NCBI RefSeq assembly: GCF_007970665.1 | Contig: NZ_CP042430.1 | Span: forward strand, 1,612,001 to 1,676,000 | Origin: Baekduia soli | GTDB taxonomy: Bacteria; Actinomycetota; Thermoleophilia; Solirubrobacterales; Solirubrobacteraceae | Length of the DNA stretch: 64,000 nucleotides | Direction of reading: 5' to 3' | In this document: piece after piece, positions 496 through 20,184 of the stretch | How positions within the stretch are numbered: position 1 is the stretch's first letter | Layout: the number at the start of each line of letters is the position of its first letter | Made by a program: the position numbers and the translations under genes | The notes under the pieces: generated by a model | What the model was told of the DNA's origin: nothing | What the model saw: the letters and a program-made list of their open reading frames with translations, nothing else | Databases searched by the model: none

Positions 496-2523
496 TCACG
501 GCGTGCGAACGCGGCGGCGAGCGATCGCTGAGGCTTCGTGCGCCAGTGGGCGCAGCGTGGCGGTGACGAGCAGGGCTGGTGCTGAGCGGAGCCTGGGGCC
601 GAGGGCGACCGTCGAGGTCCACGAGCCTTGACGCGATCTGCCTCGCATCGTTGCGCAGCTTCTGGCCGCCCCGGGGGCGCACACGCGGACGGTCAGGCGT
701 CCGGCGGTGCTGGAGGTTCCCGCCACGCGGAGGGCGGTTCGTCCTCGCGGATGAGTTCGCCGCACGATCAGCAGCCGGATGGTGGAGGGGCGCAGTGCCT
801 GCCGTGGCACGGCATCACGAGTCGGCCAGATGAGCGTGGACGGTGAGAGCGTCTCGGTCGGTTGGTCGGCTGTCGGCGACGGGGAGGACGGCAGCACGGG
901 GGCCGAGACGGAACCGGTCAAGGTGCTGAAGGCCTGCCGGGTGCCTGCTTCGTTGGACCCGTTGAGCGCGGCCCGCAGCGTCCGGCCGGACAGCTCGGGG
1001 CCGAGGATCAACGTGGGCTCGGTCGCACTGGTCAGCGTCTGGCAGTCATCGCCCTGCGGGCTGCACGACTGCCAGCTCCACGTGGTGCTGGTGGCGTCCT
1101 GGAAGCTTCCGCCCTGGGCGGTCAGCGTCTGACCAATCACCGGTTCGCCCGCGATGGTCGGGATGCTGGTGATGGTGGGCAGAGGCATGGAGGCCGCGGC
1201 CTGTCCGGAGATGAGCGACAGCAACGCTGATGCGTCGAGCGTGCCGCCGGCGACGGTCCGTCCCGCCATGTCGGCAGTCGGTCGGGCGGAGGCGATCAGG
1301 GCGCTGCGGATGGCCGACGGGGTCGCGGAGGGCGCGAGGGCTTTGGCCAGCGCGACGGCGCCGGCGACGTGCGGGCTGGCCATGCTGGTCCCGCTCATGT
1401 ACACCAGGCCCCCGCCTGGTGTCCAGGAACGGATGTCCTGACCGGGCGCGCCGAGGTCAACGCTCGTGGCGCCGAAATCGGAGAACGATGCGAGGCCGCC
1501 GGTGTTGGTCGACGCGGCGACGCAGACAACGTTGCTCAAGGTGTAGGAGCACGGGTAGTGCGGCGTCTGCTCGACGTTGGCGGCGTCGTTGCCGGCCGCG
1601 GTGACCAGCATCACGTCGGGATGGCGGCTGATGGCGTCACGGAGGTAGGTGCTGTCGGTGGTGCCGCTGAGGCTGGCGTTGACGACCTGCGCGCCCTCGC
1701 GCGCGGCATAGTCGAAGCCGTCGGCGACAGCGCTGACGTAGCCCGAGCCGGAACCGTCGAGCACCTTGACCGTCAGCAATCTGGCCTGGGGCGCAACGCC
1801 GACGATACCGGAGCGGTTGTCGGCGGCCGCGACGGCGGTGCCCGAGACGTGGGTCCCGTGGCCGTTGTCGTCGGAGATGTTGGTGGTGTCGGTGACAAAG
1901 CTCCAGCCGTGGACGTCATCGACCTTGCCGTCGGCGTCATCGTCGATGCCGTTGCCGGGAATCTCGGCGGGGTTGGTCCACGCGTTGGTGGCCAGGTCGC
2001 CGATCGTGAGGTCGGCGCCGGTGTCGAGCACGGCCACGGTGGCGCCGGCGCCCCGTGTGCGGTCCCACGCGTCGAGTGCGCGGATGTCCTGCCCGGGCGT
2101 CCCGGGTTGGCCGTTGATCGTCTGGCCCGTGTTCGACAGTCCCCACAGGCTCGAGAACGCCGGATCGTTGGGGGCCGCTGTCGTCACGGCGACGCGCTCG
2201 TCGACTTCTGCGTAACGCACGCTCGGGTCGCGGCGAAGCGCGCGCAGTGCGCCGGCGGGGTCCTCGGCGAGGACCGCTTCGGCCCCGGGCAGCGCCAACG
2301 CCTTGAGCGCGACGGCACCGGCACGCGAGCGGGCTTCGACGCGTTGATCGGCACGAGCGGCGGGATCGAAGCGCACGATCAGGCGTCGGCTGGCGGCAGC
2401 GTTGTCGCTGAAGACGAGCAACCCCCCGAAGAGGGCGATCAGGCCCCCGACGAGGCGGCTGCGCCGCCGCGTCGGCTGGGGGCCGCGGCGACGGCGCCGG
2501 GCCGTCGCCGCGGTCGGGCTCAC
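496..2523 (-). CDS. secreted subtilisin-like serine protease (peptidase S8)
   Basis: The 675-residue product begins with an Arg-rich stretch and a hydrophobic segment (about 24-44) ending AAAS, a signal peptide or anchor. An inhibitor-like propeptide follows (about 46-115, containing RYAEVDE). The S8 catalytic triad is complete: Asp167 in AVLDTGAD, His222 in NGHGTHVSG and Ser380 in GTSMASPHVA, with oxyanion Asn312 in AAGN. An Ig-like module (about 445-545) and a Ser/Pro linker lead to a basic C-terminal domain. The start lies 5 nt after the stop of the upstream secreted repeat protein, so the two are probably co-transcribed behind the c-di-GMP riboswitch. Extracellular proteolysis is the family role; the substrate is unknown. 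Confidence 0.9.
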   Translation of the reverse strand: MSPTAATARRRRRGPQPTRRRSRLVGGLIALFGGLLVFSDNAAASRRLIVRFDPAARADQRVEARSRAGAVALKALALPGAEAVLAEDPAGALRALRRDPSVRYAEVDERVAVTTAAPNDPAFSSLWGLSNTGQTINGQPGTPGQDIRALDAWDRTRGAGATVAVLDTGADLTIGDLATNAWTNPAEIPGNGIDDDADGKVDDVHGWSFVTDTTNISDDNGHGTHVSGTAVAAADNRSGIVGVAPQARLLTVKVLDGSGSGYVSAVADGFDYAAREGAQVVNASLSGTTDSTYLRDAISRHPDVMLVTAAGNDAANVEQTPHYPCSYTLSNVVCVAASTNTGGLASFSDFGATSVDLGAPGQDIRSWTPGGGLVYMSGTSMASPHVAGAVALAKALAPSATPSAIRSALIASARPTADMAGRTVAGGTLDASALLSLISGQAAASMPLPTITSIPTIAGEPVIGQTLTAQGGSFQDATSTTWSWQSCSPQGDDCQTLTSATEPTLILGPELSGRTLRAALNGSNEAGTRQAFSTLTGSVSAPVLPSSPSPTADQPTETLSPSTLIWPTRDAVPRQALRPSTIRLLIVRRTHPRGRTALRVAGTSSTAGRLTVRVCAPGAARSCATMRGRSRQGSWTSTVALGPRLRSAPALLVTATLRPLAHEASAIARRRVRTP

Positions 2524-2528
2524 GCGCG

Positions 2529-3179
2529 TCAGCTCGCCGTGCTGGTGGGCGGCGCGGCGGTCGCCGGGTCAGTCGTGCTGGGGTCGCTTGTGGCGGGATC
2601 GGCCGTGGCCGGAGCGGTCGTGCTGGGATCGGGTGCCGGCGTCGTCTCGTCCGGGCGGTCGGCCAAGAGCCGCACCGCGGCCTTGACACACTGGCTGAAC
2701 GGCGTGCCCTTCTGGCCGGCGACGTGCTTCTTGGACGCCGTCTTGCACGCGGCTGTCGGCGAGACGGCACTGCCGGAGGCGATCTTGGCCAACGCGGTCA
2801 CGCACTGGCTGAAGGCCGTGCCCTTCTGGCCGGCGACGTGCTTCTTGGACGCCGCCTTGCAGTAGCTGCCGTAGGCCGTGGTCGCTGCACCGGTGGTCGC
2901 CGCGCCAGCGCCCGAGGAGACCGACGACGCGGGGGCGTTCGTCGCCAGCTGCGTGGATCCGGGGTTGTCGGTGCCGGTGGGATGGTCGCCCTGCGACGGG
3001 TGACCGTCGGCGGCCGGGTGCTGGACCGGGGTGGACGGCGGACTCGACGGCAGTCCGGCGGGAGCATGGGCCTGCGCAGCCGCCGGGAGGGTCGCGGGCG
3101 GTCCGGCGGCGTTGGCGACACCGAGCGGGAGGGCGAGCGCCGCGGACAGTGCGGCCGCCGCGAGGTACGTGGTCTTCAC
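2529..3179 (-). CDS. secreted protein with two Cys-flanked SKKHVAGQKGT repeats
   Basis: The 216-residue protein starts at GTG with AGGAG six nucleotides upstream. It has a clear signal peptide (residues 1-24, ending ANA), a Pro/Ser/Ala-rich region, then two near-identical repeats. Each contains a Cys, then ASKKHVAGQKGT, then FSQCV, so each carries a Cys pair about 18 residues apart. The tail is a low-complexity Thr/Ala/Asp/Pro sequence. It is probably exported to the surface. I recognise no enzyme family; the repeat looks like a small disulfide-stapled helical module. Its position between a GEMM riboswitch and a secreted protease suggests that the pair responds to c-di-GMP and the protein may be substrate, partner or matrix component. 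Confidence 0.8.
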   Translation of the reverse strand: MKTTYLAAAALSAALALPLGVANAAGPPATLPAAAQAHAPAGLPSSPPSTPVQHPAADGHPSQGDHPTGTDNPGSTQLATNAPASSVSSGAGAATTGAATTAYGSYCKAASKKHVAGQKGTAFSQCVTALAKIASGSAVSPTAACKTASKKHVAGQKGTPFSQCVKAAVRLLADRPDETTPAPDPSTTAPATADPATSDPSTTDPATAAPPTSTAS

Positions 3180-3191
3180 GAGGTGCTCCTG

Positions 3192-3268
3192 GGTGACTGG
3201 GCGACCTTCCGTAGGAAAGGTCCCTGGCTTTGCGTCCCCGCCTCACGACGGGTTTGCCTTGTATTCCG
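3192..3268 (-). promoter_or_regulatory. cyclic di-GMP-I (GEMM-I) riboswitch
   Basis: Read on the minus strand, the leader contains AAGGCAAACC, a hairpin CCCGUC-GUGA-GGCGGG closed by a GNRA tetraloop, GGACGCAAAGCCA, and a second hairpin built from GGGACCUU and AAGGUCGCC. These match the conserved core and order of the GEMM-I aptamer, including the tetraloop that docks into the second helix. The aptamer ends about 10 nt before the AGGAG ribosome site of the secreted repeat protein, so control of translation initiation is plausible. No separate terminator is obvious, and whether c-di-GMP switches expression on or off cannot be read. Confidence 0.85.
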
Positions 3269-3299
3269 AGGTTTGATGCCTCTGGATCTACAACGCCCC

Positions 3300-3662
3300 A
3301 CCGAGCCGAGGGTCAGGACCGGTCTCCCAGGCTGCGCTGCAACTCGACCATTCGTCCAGTCAAGTGGTACTGGCCCGTCGAACGCTTCAGGCGACTGGCA
3401 CCCAGGCGCCATCTCCAAGATCCGATCCCTGTTGAGCGTGCACGTGCCCTCGGCAGCGGTCGACTCGGTGCATGGGCCGAAGTGGTTGACCGCGCCGGAC
3501 GGGTCGATCGCGTCGACCTGCCCTGCGGTCCCGTTGCCCAGCCGGCGTGAGGCCGGTCTTGCCGAGCCGCTCGATGCCGACCTGCTGCCAGCAGAACTGG
3601 CTCACGCTCGTACCGCCGGGCTTGTTGGCCGAGCAGTCGGTCTGCCTGATCGCGCGTGACAC
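3300..3662 (-). pseudogene. degraded minus-strand coding remnant upstream of the riboswitch
   Basis: Two minus-strand frames give protein-like text that would join through a frameshift near 3535-3560. The upstream part contains TDCSANKPGGTSVSQFC and the downstream part VDAIDPSGAVNHFGPC followed by a Cys-containing stretch. The Cys spacing resembles a secreted disulfide-rich protein, but I recognise no family. No intact start-to-stop frame spans both. The rest of 3269-3823 shows no convincing gene; it should hold the promoter of the GEMM leader. Confidence 0.25.
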
Positions 3663-3823
3663 GAAGATCCTGGACCGGCGACGGACCGGCGGAGGCCGGA
3701 ATCAGTGTGTGGACGTGGATGTACGATCGCCCGAAGTGACCAGCGTCAGGTCGTCCGGCCGTGACGCTGTTCGTCGGTGACCCATCGGTGTCGCTACGGG
3801 CGCGCAGAATGGGGCATGCTTGG

Positions 3824-4645: not shown

Positions 4646-6110
<1,465 letters not shown>

Positions 6111-6268
6111 TTCAATGTCGCGGCAGCATAACCGCCAATCCACTCCGTAGTCGCCGTGACGCCGGTCCGCTTGCCATCGAGCAGGCCGGGGTTACGTGCT
6201 GGGCCGACGGATCCGCCGGTGTTTTCCGCGGCGTCGTCCGGCGGTGGTCGAGGAGCCGTCGTGAGCGC

Positions 6269-7900
6269 CTATGGGTCCTTATGGCGTCGCGGGGCCCGAG
6301 GCGGGCGGCGGGTGAGTCCCTTGGGACGCCGAGGCCCGGGTGGTGCTGCCGTCGGCGTCGTCACCGCGGGCGAGGCGGGGACAGCCGCGCCGGGCTGGAA
6401 CCCCTGTGGAGCCCGGGCCGAGCCAGACGGCGTCAAAGCCGGGGTGTGGTCGCTCCCCGCCGTAGCCTGGAGGCCGCTCCCGGTGCCGTGATCATCGCCG
6501 GCGGGCGCACCCGGCGGGGCATGTTGGGCCTTTGCGCCGTCCGTCGGGGCGGTGCTCTGCGCCGGCGCGTGACGGTTGCCTGCCGAGCCGGCGCGGCGTC
6601 CCGACGGAGACGTCGTCGTGGCCGGTGAGCGCTGCGAGCCGGGCACGACGGCGCGGGCCGTCCGACCGGCCTCAGCGCCGTCGTGGCCAGAGCCGGCATG
6701 CATGCCGGGGATGGTCGCGACCGGGGTTGAACTCCGGGTGGCAGGACGCGACGACATCGTGTTTCCACCAGCATCTGCCGGGCCGGGCGCCGAGCGCGTT
6801 GCGGACTGCGGCACACCGCCCGGCGGACCCATGCGCTGACCCCTGCCGAGCGAGTCGCGCACGTGCGCAGAGGTGATCCCAGCCGGCCCGGACTCGGAGC
6901 CTGATGCATGAGGGCGCGTCCCGCTCGGCGCGGCGACGGGAGCCTTCGCGCCGGCGGCTGGAGCAGAGCCGAAGATCTGTGAGACGGGCGGCGCGGCGAT
7001 GGCCCCGCCGGTGGCCGTCACCGCCACCGCTGCGGCCAACGCCACCTTCCCCGTCACGGTCGCCACCATGCCGGTCGAGGCCGATGACGCACCGAGAGCG
7101 CCCGAGCTCTTCGCACCGGCGCCCAGCAGATGAGCGGCCATGGCGGCGCCTGTGGCCAGCGGAAGGGGCGGAGCAAGCAGGGCGAGCTCTCCTGGGCGTC
7201 GCTGCAGATCGGACTGGAAGGCCTGGCACATCACGCAGGACCGCAGGTGCGAGCGGAGACGGCGTCCTCGCAGGACGCGCTTGTCGCCGTCAGAGAGCGC
7301 GCGCCGGCACGGCTCGCACTCCATCTCGCGTCCCTCGCGGTGCTCCAGGAGCGCGACGCGGGCCTCGAAGATCGTCTGCTTCACGGCGCGCGGCGAGGAC
7401 TCAAGCACGACCGCGATCTCCTCGTGGCTGAGGCCGCTGAGCTCGCGCAGCACCAACGCCTCTCGCTGACGCTCGGGCAGCTCGTCGAGATCGCCGCGCA
7501 GCTCGGCCAGCTGCTGCCGGAGCTCGACCACCCGCTCCATGGCATCGCCGCCGATCTCGCCGGCCTCGCCCAACTCGCACGTGCTGCGGCGTCGGCGCAG
7601 CAACGAGATCGACTCGTTGTGCGCGATCCGGAACAGCCACGGCCGCAACTCGAAGTCGCGGTCCTCGTGCTGCAGCGCCGCAAACGCCCTCGCCATCGTG
7701 CTCTGCAGCGCGTCGCAGGCGTCCTCGTCGTGATCGACGATCGACCGGCAGTAGCGATAGAGCGCCTGATGGTGTCGCTCGTAGACGACGGCGAAGGCCG
7801 CCTCGCTGCCCCTCGCTGCCCGCGATCGCAGCGCACCATCGCCACGACGGCGAAGAACCACCGGCGCCAAAGCAGGCGACGCGATCGAGGACGACGACAC
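6269..7900 (-). CDS. ECF-type sigma-70 factor fused to zinc-finger/membrane tail
   Basis: Residues about 30-105 form sigma region 2 (YERHHQALYRYC through RPWLFRIAHNESISLLRRRR) and about 135-190 form region 4 (LPERQREALVLRELSGLSHEEIA). Next comes a putative anti-sigma zinc finger with CEPC and an HxxxCxxC element (SHLRSCVMC, about 195-230). A mildly hydrophobic segment (about 270-300) could cross the membrane. The remaining 240 residues are Pro/Ala/Ser/Thr-rich, like an extracytoplasmic tail. At 543 residues it is far longer than a usual ECF factor (about 170-220). The fusion suggests self-contained regulation: the sigma domain may be held by its own sensor tail. The neighbours give no target. 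Confidence 0.85.
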   Translation of the reverse strand: MSSSSIASPALAPVVLRRRGDGALRSRAARGSEAAFAVVYERHHQALYRYCRSIVDHDEDACDALQSTMARAFAALQHEDRDFELRPWLFRIAHNESISLLRRRRSTCELGEAGEIGGDAMERVVELRQQLAELRGDLDELPERQREALVLRELSGLSHEEIAVVLESSPRAVKQTIFEARVALLEHREGREMECEPCRRALSDGDKRVLRGRRLRSHLRSCVMCQAFQSDLQRRPGELALLAPPLPLATGAAMAAHLLGAGAKSSGALGASSASTGMVATVTGKVALAAAVAVTATGGAIAAPPVSQIFGSAPAAGAKAPVAAPSGTRPHASGSESGPAGITSAHVRDSLGRGQRMGPPGGVPQSATRSAPGPADAGGNTMSSRPATRSSTPVATIPGMHAGSGHDGAEAGRTARAVVPGSQRSPATTTSPSGRRAGSAGNRHAPAQSTAPTDGAKAQHAPPGAPAGDDHGTGSGLQATAGSDHTPALTPSGSARAPQGFQPGAAVPASPAVTTPTAAPPGPRRPKGLTRRPPRAPRRHKDP

Positions 7901-8755: not shown

Positions 8756-8928
8756 CGCGGTGGGTTCGCCGGCGCTCGCTGTTGGCGTCCGCTGCGGCCG
8801 GTCCGCCGCAATGGGGCCATTTCGACCGCGTTACGGCACCGCTGCCCAAACGCGTACGGACCGAGAAGACACGAGAGGTCAGCCGGCCTGCCGCCCGGCG
8901 GCTGGACGCGCCGCCGCGGACGACCGGT

Positions 8929-19905: not shown

Positions 19906-20184
19906 GCGGACCGTGCTAGGCGGGGAGGTAGCGGTGCCCTGTCGCTCGCAATCCGCTCTAGCGAGGCTGAATCCCCGGTTGAGGGGTGTGGCCAACGGGG
20001 TCTGCGCGCCGTGGCGGCGCTGATGGCCCGGGTCCCGCGCGGCGTCGGCTCGTGAACCAGGTCAGGTCCGGAAGGAAGCAGCCTTAAGCGATCACCGGCG
20101 AGCGCAGCGGGAGTTCCCGGTGCCGGAGCCGCCCTCCGGTGTGGCGCCCGAGGGACGCATGTCGAGGTCGGGTGCACGGTCCGC
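19906..20184 (+). ncRNA. ffs: signal recognition particle RNA, long bacterial form
   Basis: The universally conserved apical domain appears at 20059-20082 as GGUCAGG and GGAAGGAAGCAGCC. The 5' end GCGGACCGUGC pairs perfectly with the 3' end GCACGGUCCGC (20174-20184), closing a roughly 280-nt rod. The 5' part (GCUAGGCGGGGAGGUAGCGGUGCCCUG, given here only as a partial reading) has the Alu-like fold of long SRP RNAs of Gram-positive bacteria. It lies between the reductase gene and a strong terminator. SRP RNA guides Ffh to membrane-protein signals. Confidence 0.93.

What the first reader, a model, noticed from the sequence alone, without database searches (positions are those of the whole stretch)
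2529..3268. c-di-GMP riboswitch controlling a secreted repeat protein and subtilase
Seen: a GEMM-I aptamer with a GNRA tetraloop sits directly before the ribosome site of a secreted Cys-repeat protein, which is coupled to a subtilisin-like protease. Known: GEMM-I riboswitches control motility, matrix and surface proteins. Inference: this operon is a c-di-GMP-dependent surface or matrix remodelling unit in an under-studied actinobacterial lineage. I see no terminator, so the switch may act on translation.
Basis: partly seen in the sequence, partly recalled or inferred. Interest (0 to 1): 0.72.

Follow-up and report, generated by a model that had tools for sequence, protein, structure and literature searches.

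The report
c-di-GMP riboswitch before secreted protein genes
An RNA sensor of the c-di-GMP class overlaps the ribosome-binding site of a two-gene unit for a secreted repeat protein and a secreted protease, and relatives of this bacterium carry the same sensor mostly in front of genes for pili and exported proteins.

Summary
Rfam RF01051 (c-di-GMP-I) matches window 3268-3189, minus strand, at 57.2 bits (cut-off 35). The ribosome site AGGAG (3190-3186) overlaps the aptamer's last two bases and GTG follows at 3179. The gene encodes a signal-bearing two-repeat Cys protein; a subtilase ORF starts 5 nt after its stop. No terminator-like site was found, so translational control is likeliest; on or off is not settled.

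The aptamer lies 9-16 nt before homologous repeat genes in three other genera of the family (one hit weak) and in one MAG of another family, but in only 7 of 31 family loci examined. Among 107 catalogued family targets, 101 look like pilins or exported proteins.

New is a candidate expression platform: a GAGG...CCUC hairpin just 5' of the aptamer, in 8 of 38 loci whose ribosome site abuts the aptamer and 0 of 75 others, and in 3 of 12 against 0 of 26 in held-out loci (p = 0.026). Folding does not show the proposed alternative pairing in the window. The element is a new member of a known class; ligand binding is untested.

The parts
3268..3282 (-). GAGGCAUCAAACCUC hairpin directly 5' of the aptamer; candidate switching element (GAGG 3282-3279, CCUC 3271-3268)
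   Evidence: Motif count 8 of 38 SD-adjacent loci against 0 of 75 others; pattern hit in the window; 4-bp stem, 7-nt loop; formed in the predicted free structure of the window leader
3189..3268 (-). c-di-GMP-I (GEMM-I) riboswitch aptamer
   Evidence: RF01051, 57.2 bits, E 1.5e-8; contact bases G, A, C
3186..3190 (-). Ribosome-binding site AGGAG, overlapping the last two aptamer bases, 6 nt before the start codon
   Evidence: Sequence
2529..3179 (-). Gene for a 216-aa protein with signal-like N-terminus and two Cys repeats, GTG start
   Evidence: ORF; homologues in 28 of 146 family genomes; no Pfam family; secretion inferred from the N-terminus by reading
2799..2861 (-). Repeat 1, CKAASKKHVAGQKGTAFSQCV
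   Evidence: Cys, Ser, Val, Gly and Phe columns invariant in 15 aligned relatives
2685..2747 (-). Repeat 2, CKTASKKHVAGQKGTPFSQCV
   Evidence: Alignment
496..2523 (-). Subtilase gene (675 aa, GTG start), 5 nt after the repeat gene's stop codon
   Evidence: PF00082 E 7e-49; spacing
6269..7900 (-). ECF sigma factor gene with long C-terminal extension; not in the unit, but homologues often lie beside the repeat gene in relatives
   Evidence: PF08281 E 1.2e-14, PF04542 E 6.8e-13; homologue near the repeat gene in 10 of 16 named loci (no background control)

Best explanation
A class I c-di-GMP riboswitch controls translation of a two-gene unit for exported proteins. Shown: a complete aptamer whose 3' end overlaps the ribosome-binding site; no terminator-like site; repeat gene and subtilase gene 5 nt apart; the same layout before homologous repeat genes in some relatives. 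Inferred: c-di-GMP binds; binding changes ribosome access to the SD; the subtilase follows by translational coupling; the products act on the cell surface or matrix. Proposed switch: CCUC (3271-3268) pairs with the upstream GAGG (SD free, on), or CCU plus the next GG pairs with the aptamer end and SD as an extended P1 (C3271-G3188, C3270-G3189, U3269-A3190, G3267-C3191, G3266-C3192; drawn by hand), which masks the SD. Ligand binding should favour P1, so I lean to 'off at high c-di-GMP', only about 55 to 45. The confidence below is for translational control by c-di-GMP in either direction.
For: RF01051 hit and intact contact bases. SD overlaps the aptamer; no terminator-like site. The genome has 28 GGDEF and 12 EAL matches over cut-off. 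Aptamer 9-16 nt before repeat genes in the window, Paraconexibacter antarcticus (three copies), G106, G012, G013 (weak, 34.1 bits) and L162. Of 112 family loci, 34 are SD-adjacent. Hairpin: 8 of 38 SD-adjacent against 0 of 75 others, shuffles mean 0.40 and at most 3; with near-identical P. antarcticus copies collapsed 7 of 37 against 0 of 75; four further hairpin-bearing aptamers, all SD-adjacent; held-out loci outside the family 3 of 12 against 0 of 26, p = 0.026. A survey reports a tendency to translational riboswitches in Actinomycetota (PMC12452182, passage).
Against: No binding or expression data. The aptamer was found before only 7 of 31 family repeat-gene loci examined. Most SD-adjacent leaders lack the hairpin. 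The motif was first seen by eye in the same data. Flanks pair with their own SD region no better than swapped flanks. Folding does not decide on or off (mean SD accessibility 0.43 free, 0.41 with the aptamer core enforced). CCUC-SD pairing appears in predicted structures of only 2 of 12 hairpin leaders (G004, G208), not in the window. Many hairpin-bearing leaders precede one helical secreted protein family, so counts are not independent. CCUC is complementary to nearly any SD.
Confidence: 0.7

Rival explanations
1. The switch is translational and turned on by c-di-GMP: without ligand the SD is held by aptamer strands (for example UUUCCU of P3 with AGGAG), and ligand-stabilised P2 and P3 free it.
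For: In the folding test the SD became more open with the aptamer core enforced in 10 of 30 leaders and less open in 6 (threshold 0.1). V. cholerae Vc1 is a class I element that acts positively (PMC4744006, passages).
Against: For the window itself the same test gave 0.45 free and 0.36 with the core enforced. It gives no role to the 5' hairpin.
Confidence: 0.35
2. Control is not at the SD but through Rho-dependent termination or mRNA stability, with the aptamer near the gene only because leaders are short.
For: No expression data exclude it; the simple scan cannot see Rho sites. For Vc1 the authors found no terminator and no anti-SD and left the mechanism open (PMC4744006, passage).
Against: The SD overlaps or abuts the aptamer repeatedly (34 of 112 family loci), leaving little room for another platform.
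Confidence: 0.15
3. The 5' hairpin is a stability or transcript-start element, or simply inherited with one gene family's leader, and plays no part in switching.
For: Several hairpin-bearing leaders precede one helical secreted protein family (cluster 2 and look-alikes by reading). Flank-swap controls were negative, and CCUC-SD pairing is predicted in only 2 of 12.
Against: It also precedes repeat genes in the window, P. antarcticus and L162 and a 475-aa protein in G169. It was seen only with SD-adjacent aptamers.
Confidence: 0.6
4. The element senses another cyclic dinucleotide, such as cGAMP.
For: Variants of this class with A at position 20 bind cGAMP (recalled; 13 GEMM-Ib elements with cGAMP binding in Geobacter are mentioned in PMC8835794, passage).
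Against: The window has G at the aligned position 20, as do 109 of 112 family loci.
Confidence: 0.05

Closest known systems
c-di-GMP-I riboswitch (GEMM-I), Rfam RF01051
   Same: Score above the curated cut-off, full-length match, GNRA loop in P2, contact bases G, A, C
   Different: The tetraloop is GCGA or GUGA in 108 of 112 family loci and a simple pattern for the CUAA...UAUG receptor of the consensus matched 0 of 112; the SD abuts the aptamer
c-di-GMP-I-GGC, Rfam RF03167
   Same: Same clan; P. antarcticus copies score 58.7 bits by either model
   Different: The window is reported under RF01051; relatives before repeat genes score 34-59 bits, under RF03167's cut-off of 59
Clostridioides difficile PPEP-1 and its surface-protein substrates under c-di-GMP riboswitches (PMC11477304, passages)
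   Same: A secreted protease and surface proteins under c-di-GMP riboswitches
   Different: There, class I before the protease and class II before the substrates act in opposite directions at transcription; here one class I element precedes both genes, the protease is a subtilase, and no substrate relation was tested
V. cholerae Vc1 before gbpA (PMC4744006, passages)
   Same: Class I aptamer before a secreted adhesion protein, with no apparent terminator
   Different: Vc1 has a long leader (transcript start 225-244 nt before the start codon) and acts positively; here the start is 9 nt from the aptamer and the sign is unknown

Membership tests
c-di-GMP-I riboswitch (RF01051) | Covariance-model score above the curated cut-off over the full model | tested here: met
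   57.2 bits against 35, model positions 1-87
c-di-GMP-I riboswitch (RF01051) | Conserved ligand-contact bases (G20, A47, C92; numbering recalled) | tested here: met
   G, A, C in the window; G 109, A 112, C 111 of 112 family loci
c-di-GMP-I riboswitch (RF01051) | GNRA tetraloop docking into a receptor in P3 | tested here: inconclusive
   GUGA loop present; consensus receptor pattern absent in 112 of 112 loci, window included; docking to a plain helix is possible (recalled)
c-di-GMP-I riboswitch (RF01051) | Binds c-di-GMP and changes expression | not testable with these tools
   Needs in-line probing or ITC and reporter fusions
c-di-GMP-I-GGC (RF03167) | Best-scoring model of the clan, above its cut-off of 59 | tested here: not met
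   The window is reported under RF01051, the lower-scoring clan overlap being left out
GEMM-Ib (cGAMP) riboswitch | A at position 20 (recalled) | tested here: not met
   G in the window
Peptidase S8 (subtilase), for the second gene | PF00082 above its curated cut-off | tested here: met
   167.1 bits against 21.8, E 7e-49
Protease-plus-substrate pair of the PPEP-1 kind | The protease cleaves the co-regulated surface protein | not testable with these tools
   No substrate data; the pair is not conserved (0 of 47 repeat-gene locus records with a subtilase match)

The most novel reading that the evidence does not exclude
In this order of Thermoleophilia, class I c-di-GMP aptamers form a secretome switch whose SD-adjacent subclass works by three-strand exchange: an SD-like GAGGC, an anti-SD CCUC at the aptamer's 5' edge and the true SD at its 3' edge compete, so the aptamer's own P1 closes over the ribosome site. 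The repeat protein belongs to a surface module with an ECF sigma factor and, in P. antarcticus, an EAL-GAF protein encoded directly downstream that could feed back on c-di-GMP. (Probability lowered from 0.30 after the recount.)
Probability: 0.25. Interest if true: 0.6.

Novelty: new member of a known kind. Interest (0 to 1): 0.45.

Why it matters
Class I c-di-GMP riboswitches are known mainly from proteobacteria and firmicutes (recalled; papers). In the held library, (riboswitch, Solirubrobacter and c-di-GMP together) found no paper, and none of the 15 papers listed of 356 held 'c-di-GMP riboswitch' or 'GEMM-I'. A regulon read from aptamers (pilins, CAP proteins, subtilases, ice-binding-like and carbohydrate-active-enzyme-like proteins) would give a first functional frame to many unannotated exported proteins of a little-studied group. 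The proposed platform, if real, would give this aptamer class a simple translational mechanism that compensatory mutants can test.

Tried and rejected
General complementarity between a leader's 5' flank and its own SD region: not above swapped flanks. Deciding on or off by folding: inconclusive. Predicted pairing of CCUC with the SD: 2 of 12 hairpin leaders, not the window; the hairpin state equals the minimum-energy state in 6 of 12. Fold of the repeat domain: AlphaFold2 pLDDT 81.7, pTM 0.69, but Foldseek against the PDB gave only 5 matches with E of 5.2 to 9.6, so no function follows. NCBIfam gave only a far sub-threshold hit for the repeat protein. Subtilase as a conserved partner of the repeat protein: none in 47 locus records, some of which are the same place twice. 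The first ORF picker mis-called several genes, among them those of P. antarcticus; it was replaced. Alignment A2 held one row in the wrong frame and was not used.

Counting notes. The 112 catalogued loci come from matches listed; one search had more matches than it listed. The ORF picker favours N-terminal hydrophobic stretches, which lifts the exported count. One search used 113 loci: four repeat-gene loci were added, duplicates and loci with under 45 nt upstream were dropped; two of its eight positives are near-identical P. antarcticus copies, and its pattern missed G113, which is SD-adjacent and has a longer loop. The four new hairpin loci were picked by eye from the capped, noisy list (G004, G014, G169) and from the six matches (G208). 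The 41 loci are those outside the family in the capped list; three were dropped before counting (L217, the same locus as L162; L181 and L201, found by the hairpin pattern). Of the 36 repeat-gene matches, 31 loci were examined for the aptamer; some loci are cut short upstream, so absence is not proven there. The ECF neighbour count has no background control.

Full report
1. The aptamer. Rfam RF01051 matches window 3268-3189 on the minus strand at 57.2 bits over the full model. A search of the whole 5.21-Mb, single-contig genome finds three such aptamers. The other two precede a 413-aa protein with a signal-like N-terminus and no Pfam match (L034) and an ice-binding-like protein (PF11999, E 2.3e-63; L035). 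The genome has 28 GGDEF and 12 EAL matches over cut-off. The aligned ligand-contact bases are intact (positions recalled).

2. The unit. AGGAG (3190-3186) overlaps the last two aptamer bases and GTG follows at 3179. The repeat protein carries two copies of CKxASKKHVAGQKGTxFSQCV; the four Cys are invariant in 15 of 15 aligned relatives. The subtilase ORF starts 5 nt after the stop codon and its domain scores E 7e-49. Beyond the subtilase (end at 496) the next genes run on the other strand and read as a branched-chain transporter operon (by reading). Simple scans found no terminator-like and no sigma-70-type promoter site in 2400-3820; such scans are weak in G+C-rich DNA.

3. Aptamer and repeat gene in relatives. 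A 69-aa query finds the repeat gene in 28 of 146 family genomes, 36 matches. I examined 31 loci for the aptamer: 29, the window, and the third P. antarcticus copy. It is present in 7, from 5 genomes: the window, P. antarcticus three times, G106, G012, and G013 (weak, 34.1 bits). In the named collection (18 loci) it also precedes the repeat gene in L162, a MAG titled Thermoleophilaceae (62.4 bits). The distance from aptamer end to start codon is 9-16 nt in these. They fall in five genera (g1, g5, g18, g19, and g51 of another family). A genome holds only a few aptamers among thousands of genes, so repeated chance is implausible, though no probability was computed; most repeat genes examined lack the aptamer.

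4. The wider set of targets. RF01051 matches 89 of 146 family genomes and 128 of 232 order genomes. I catalogued 112 family loci and picked the likely target gene. Of 107 with an ORF of 60 aa or more, 22 are pilin-like, 79 others have an N-terminal hydrophobic stretch and 6 have neither (the picker favours such stretches). Pfam on cluster representatives gives CAP, subtilase, GHL15, cellulase, polysaccharide lyase, right-handed beta-helix and ice-binding-like domains; several representatives have no match. Four genomes of one genus have the aptamer 41-45 nt before one protein cluster whose tested member, L051, is a subtilase (PF00082, E 5.9e-51). A protease under this aptamer is thus recurrent, though not beside the repeat gene.

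5. Expression platform. Pilin leaders have the start 60-98 nt from the aptamer in 20 of 22 loci; SD-adjacent leaders (SD and start within 16 nt) make up 34 of 112. Reading the latter showed a recurrent GAGG...CCUC hairpin ending at or near the aptamer's 5' end. Counted afterwards it is in 8 of 38 SD-adjacent loci, 0 of 19 pilin loci and 0 of 56 others; shuffled flanks give 0.40 on average and 3 at most in 300. The motif came from the same data, so I looked at new data. Pattern searches gave four further hairpin-bearing aptamers, in G004, G014, G169 and G208; all four are SD-adjacent. A held-out set of 38 aptamers outside the family gave 3 of 12 SD-adjacent against 0 of 26 others (Fisher p = 0.026). 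Across 15 hairpins the stem is 4-6 bp; the fifth pair is C-G in ten, G-C in one and unpaired in four.

6. Proposed mechanism. CCUC can pair with the upstream GAGG or with the SD. In the window, CCU plus the following GG can form an extended P1 with the aptamer end and SD, leaving the C92 position free (drawn by hand; P1 geometry recalled). P1 closes the ligand pocket in this class (recalled), so binding should mask the SD. Results against: flanks show no general complementarity to their own SD; enforcing the aptamer core changes SD accessibility in both directions; CCUC-SD pairing appears in predicted structures of 2 of 12 hairpin leaders (G004 free, G208 with the arm blocked) and not in the window. 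An on switch remains possible; V. cholerae Vc1 acts positively (PMC4744006, passages).

7. Neighbourhood. A homologue of the window's ECF sigma factor (6269-7900) lies within the fetched flank of the repeat gene in 10 of 16 distinct named loci, P. antarcticus counted once by its copy L151; no background rate was measured. In P. antarcticus the segment reads aptamer, repeat gene, EAL-GAF gene (PF00563 E 2.6e-38, PF01590 E 1.5e-11), second aptamer, pilin-like genes (PF07963 in the two scanned), ECF sigma gene, and nearly identical repeat-gene segments occur three times. The repeat protein may thus belong to a surface module with feedback on c-di-GMP; this is a hypothesis.

8. Comparison. By score and contact bases the element is a c-di-GMP-I member; binding is untested. 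It recalls the C. difficile pairing of surface proteins with protease PPEP-1 under c-di-GMP riboswitches (PMC11477304, passages), but with one element before both genes. PMC12452182 (passage) reports a tendency to translational riboswitches in Actinomycetota. PMC9943018 (passage) notes that the c-di-GMP models tend to recognise the same sequences, which fits the near tie of RF01051 and RF03167 here.

9. Verdict. The aptamer is a new member of a known class. Beyond the ordinary are the lineage-wide secretome regulon and a testable, unproven translational platform.

Noticed in passing
window 6010-6118 (-): TPP riboswitch (RF00059, 56.4 bits, cut-off 54.3) just before an ORF that reads as thiC (4646-6019).
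   Followed up: no
window 19911-20179 (+): Large bacterial SRP RNA (RF01854, 152.1 bits).
   Followed up: no
L112 8741-8820 (Paraconexibacter antarcticus): A second aptamer whose last bases contain the ATG of a pilin-like ORF (start at 8818 as listed), so the start codon may lie inside the aptamer; the true start is not proven.
   Followed up: partly
L112, L113, L114 (P. antarcticus): Three nearly identical copies of the aptamer and repeat-gene segment: 99.1% over 10.1 kb between two, 98.4% over 2.3 kb to the third. Cause of the duplication unknown.
   Followed up: partly
L054 (G141), L111 (G115), L039 (G010): Aptamers with A, A and C at the position aligned to G20; A there marks cGAMP-type variants (recalled), so L054 and L111 might sense cGAMP.
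   Followed up: no
112 family aptamer loci: P2 tetraloop is GCGA or GUGA in 108 of 112, and a simple pattern for the consensus CUAA...UAUG receptor matched none; possibly a lineage-specific loop and receptor swap.
   Followed up: partly
L145, L146, L147, L150-L154, L159, L161: ECF sigma factor gene beside the repeat gene in 10 of 16 distinct named loci; the repeat protein may be its surface partner.
   Followed up: partly
L138, L139, L141: The Cys repeats are fused to a domain with repeated MIPHH motifs that reads like DUF305 (recalled, not tested).
   Followed up: no
L041, L045, L047, L048, L059, L224: Neighbouring similar genes (pilins or other exported proteins), each with its own aptamer.
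   Followed up: no
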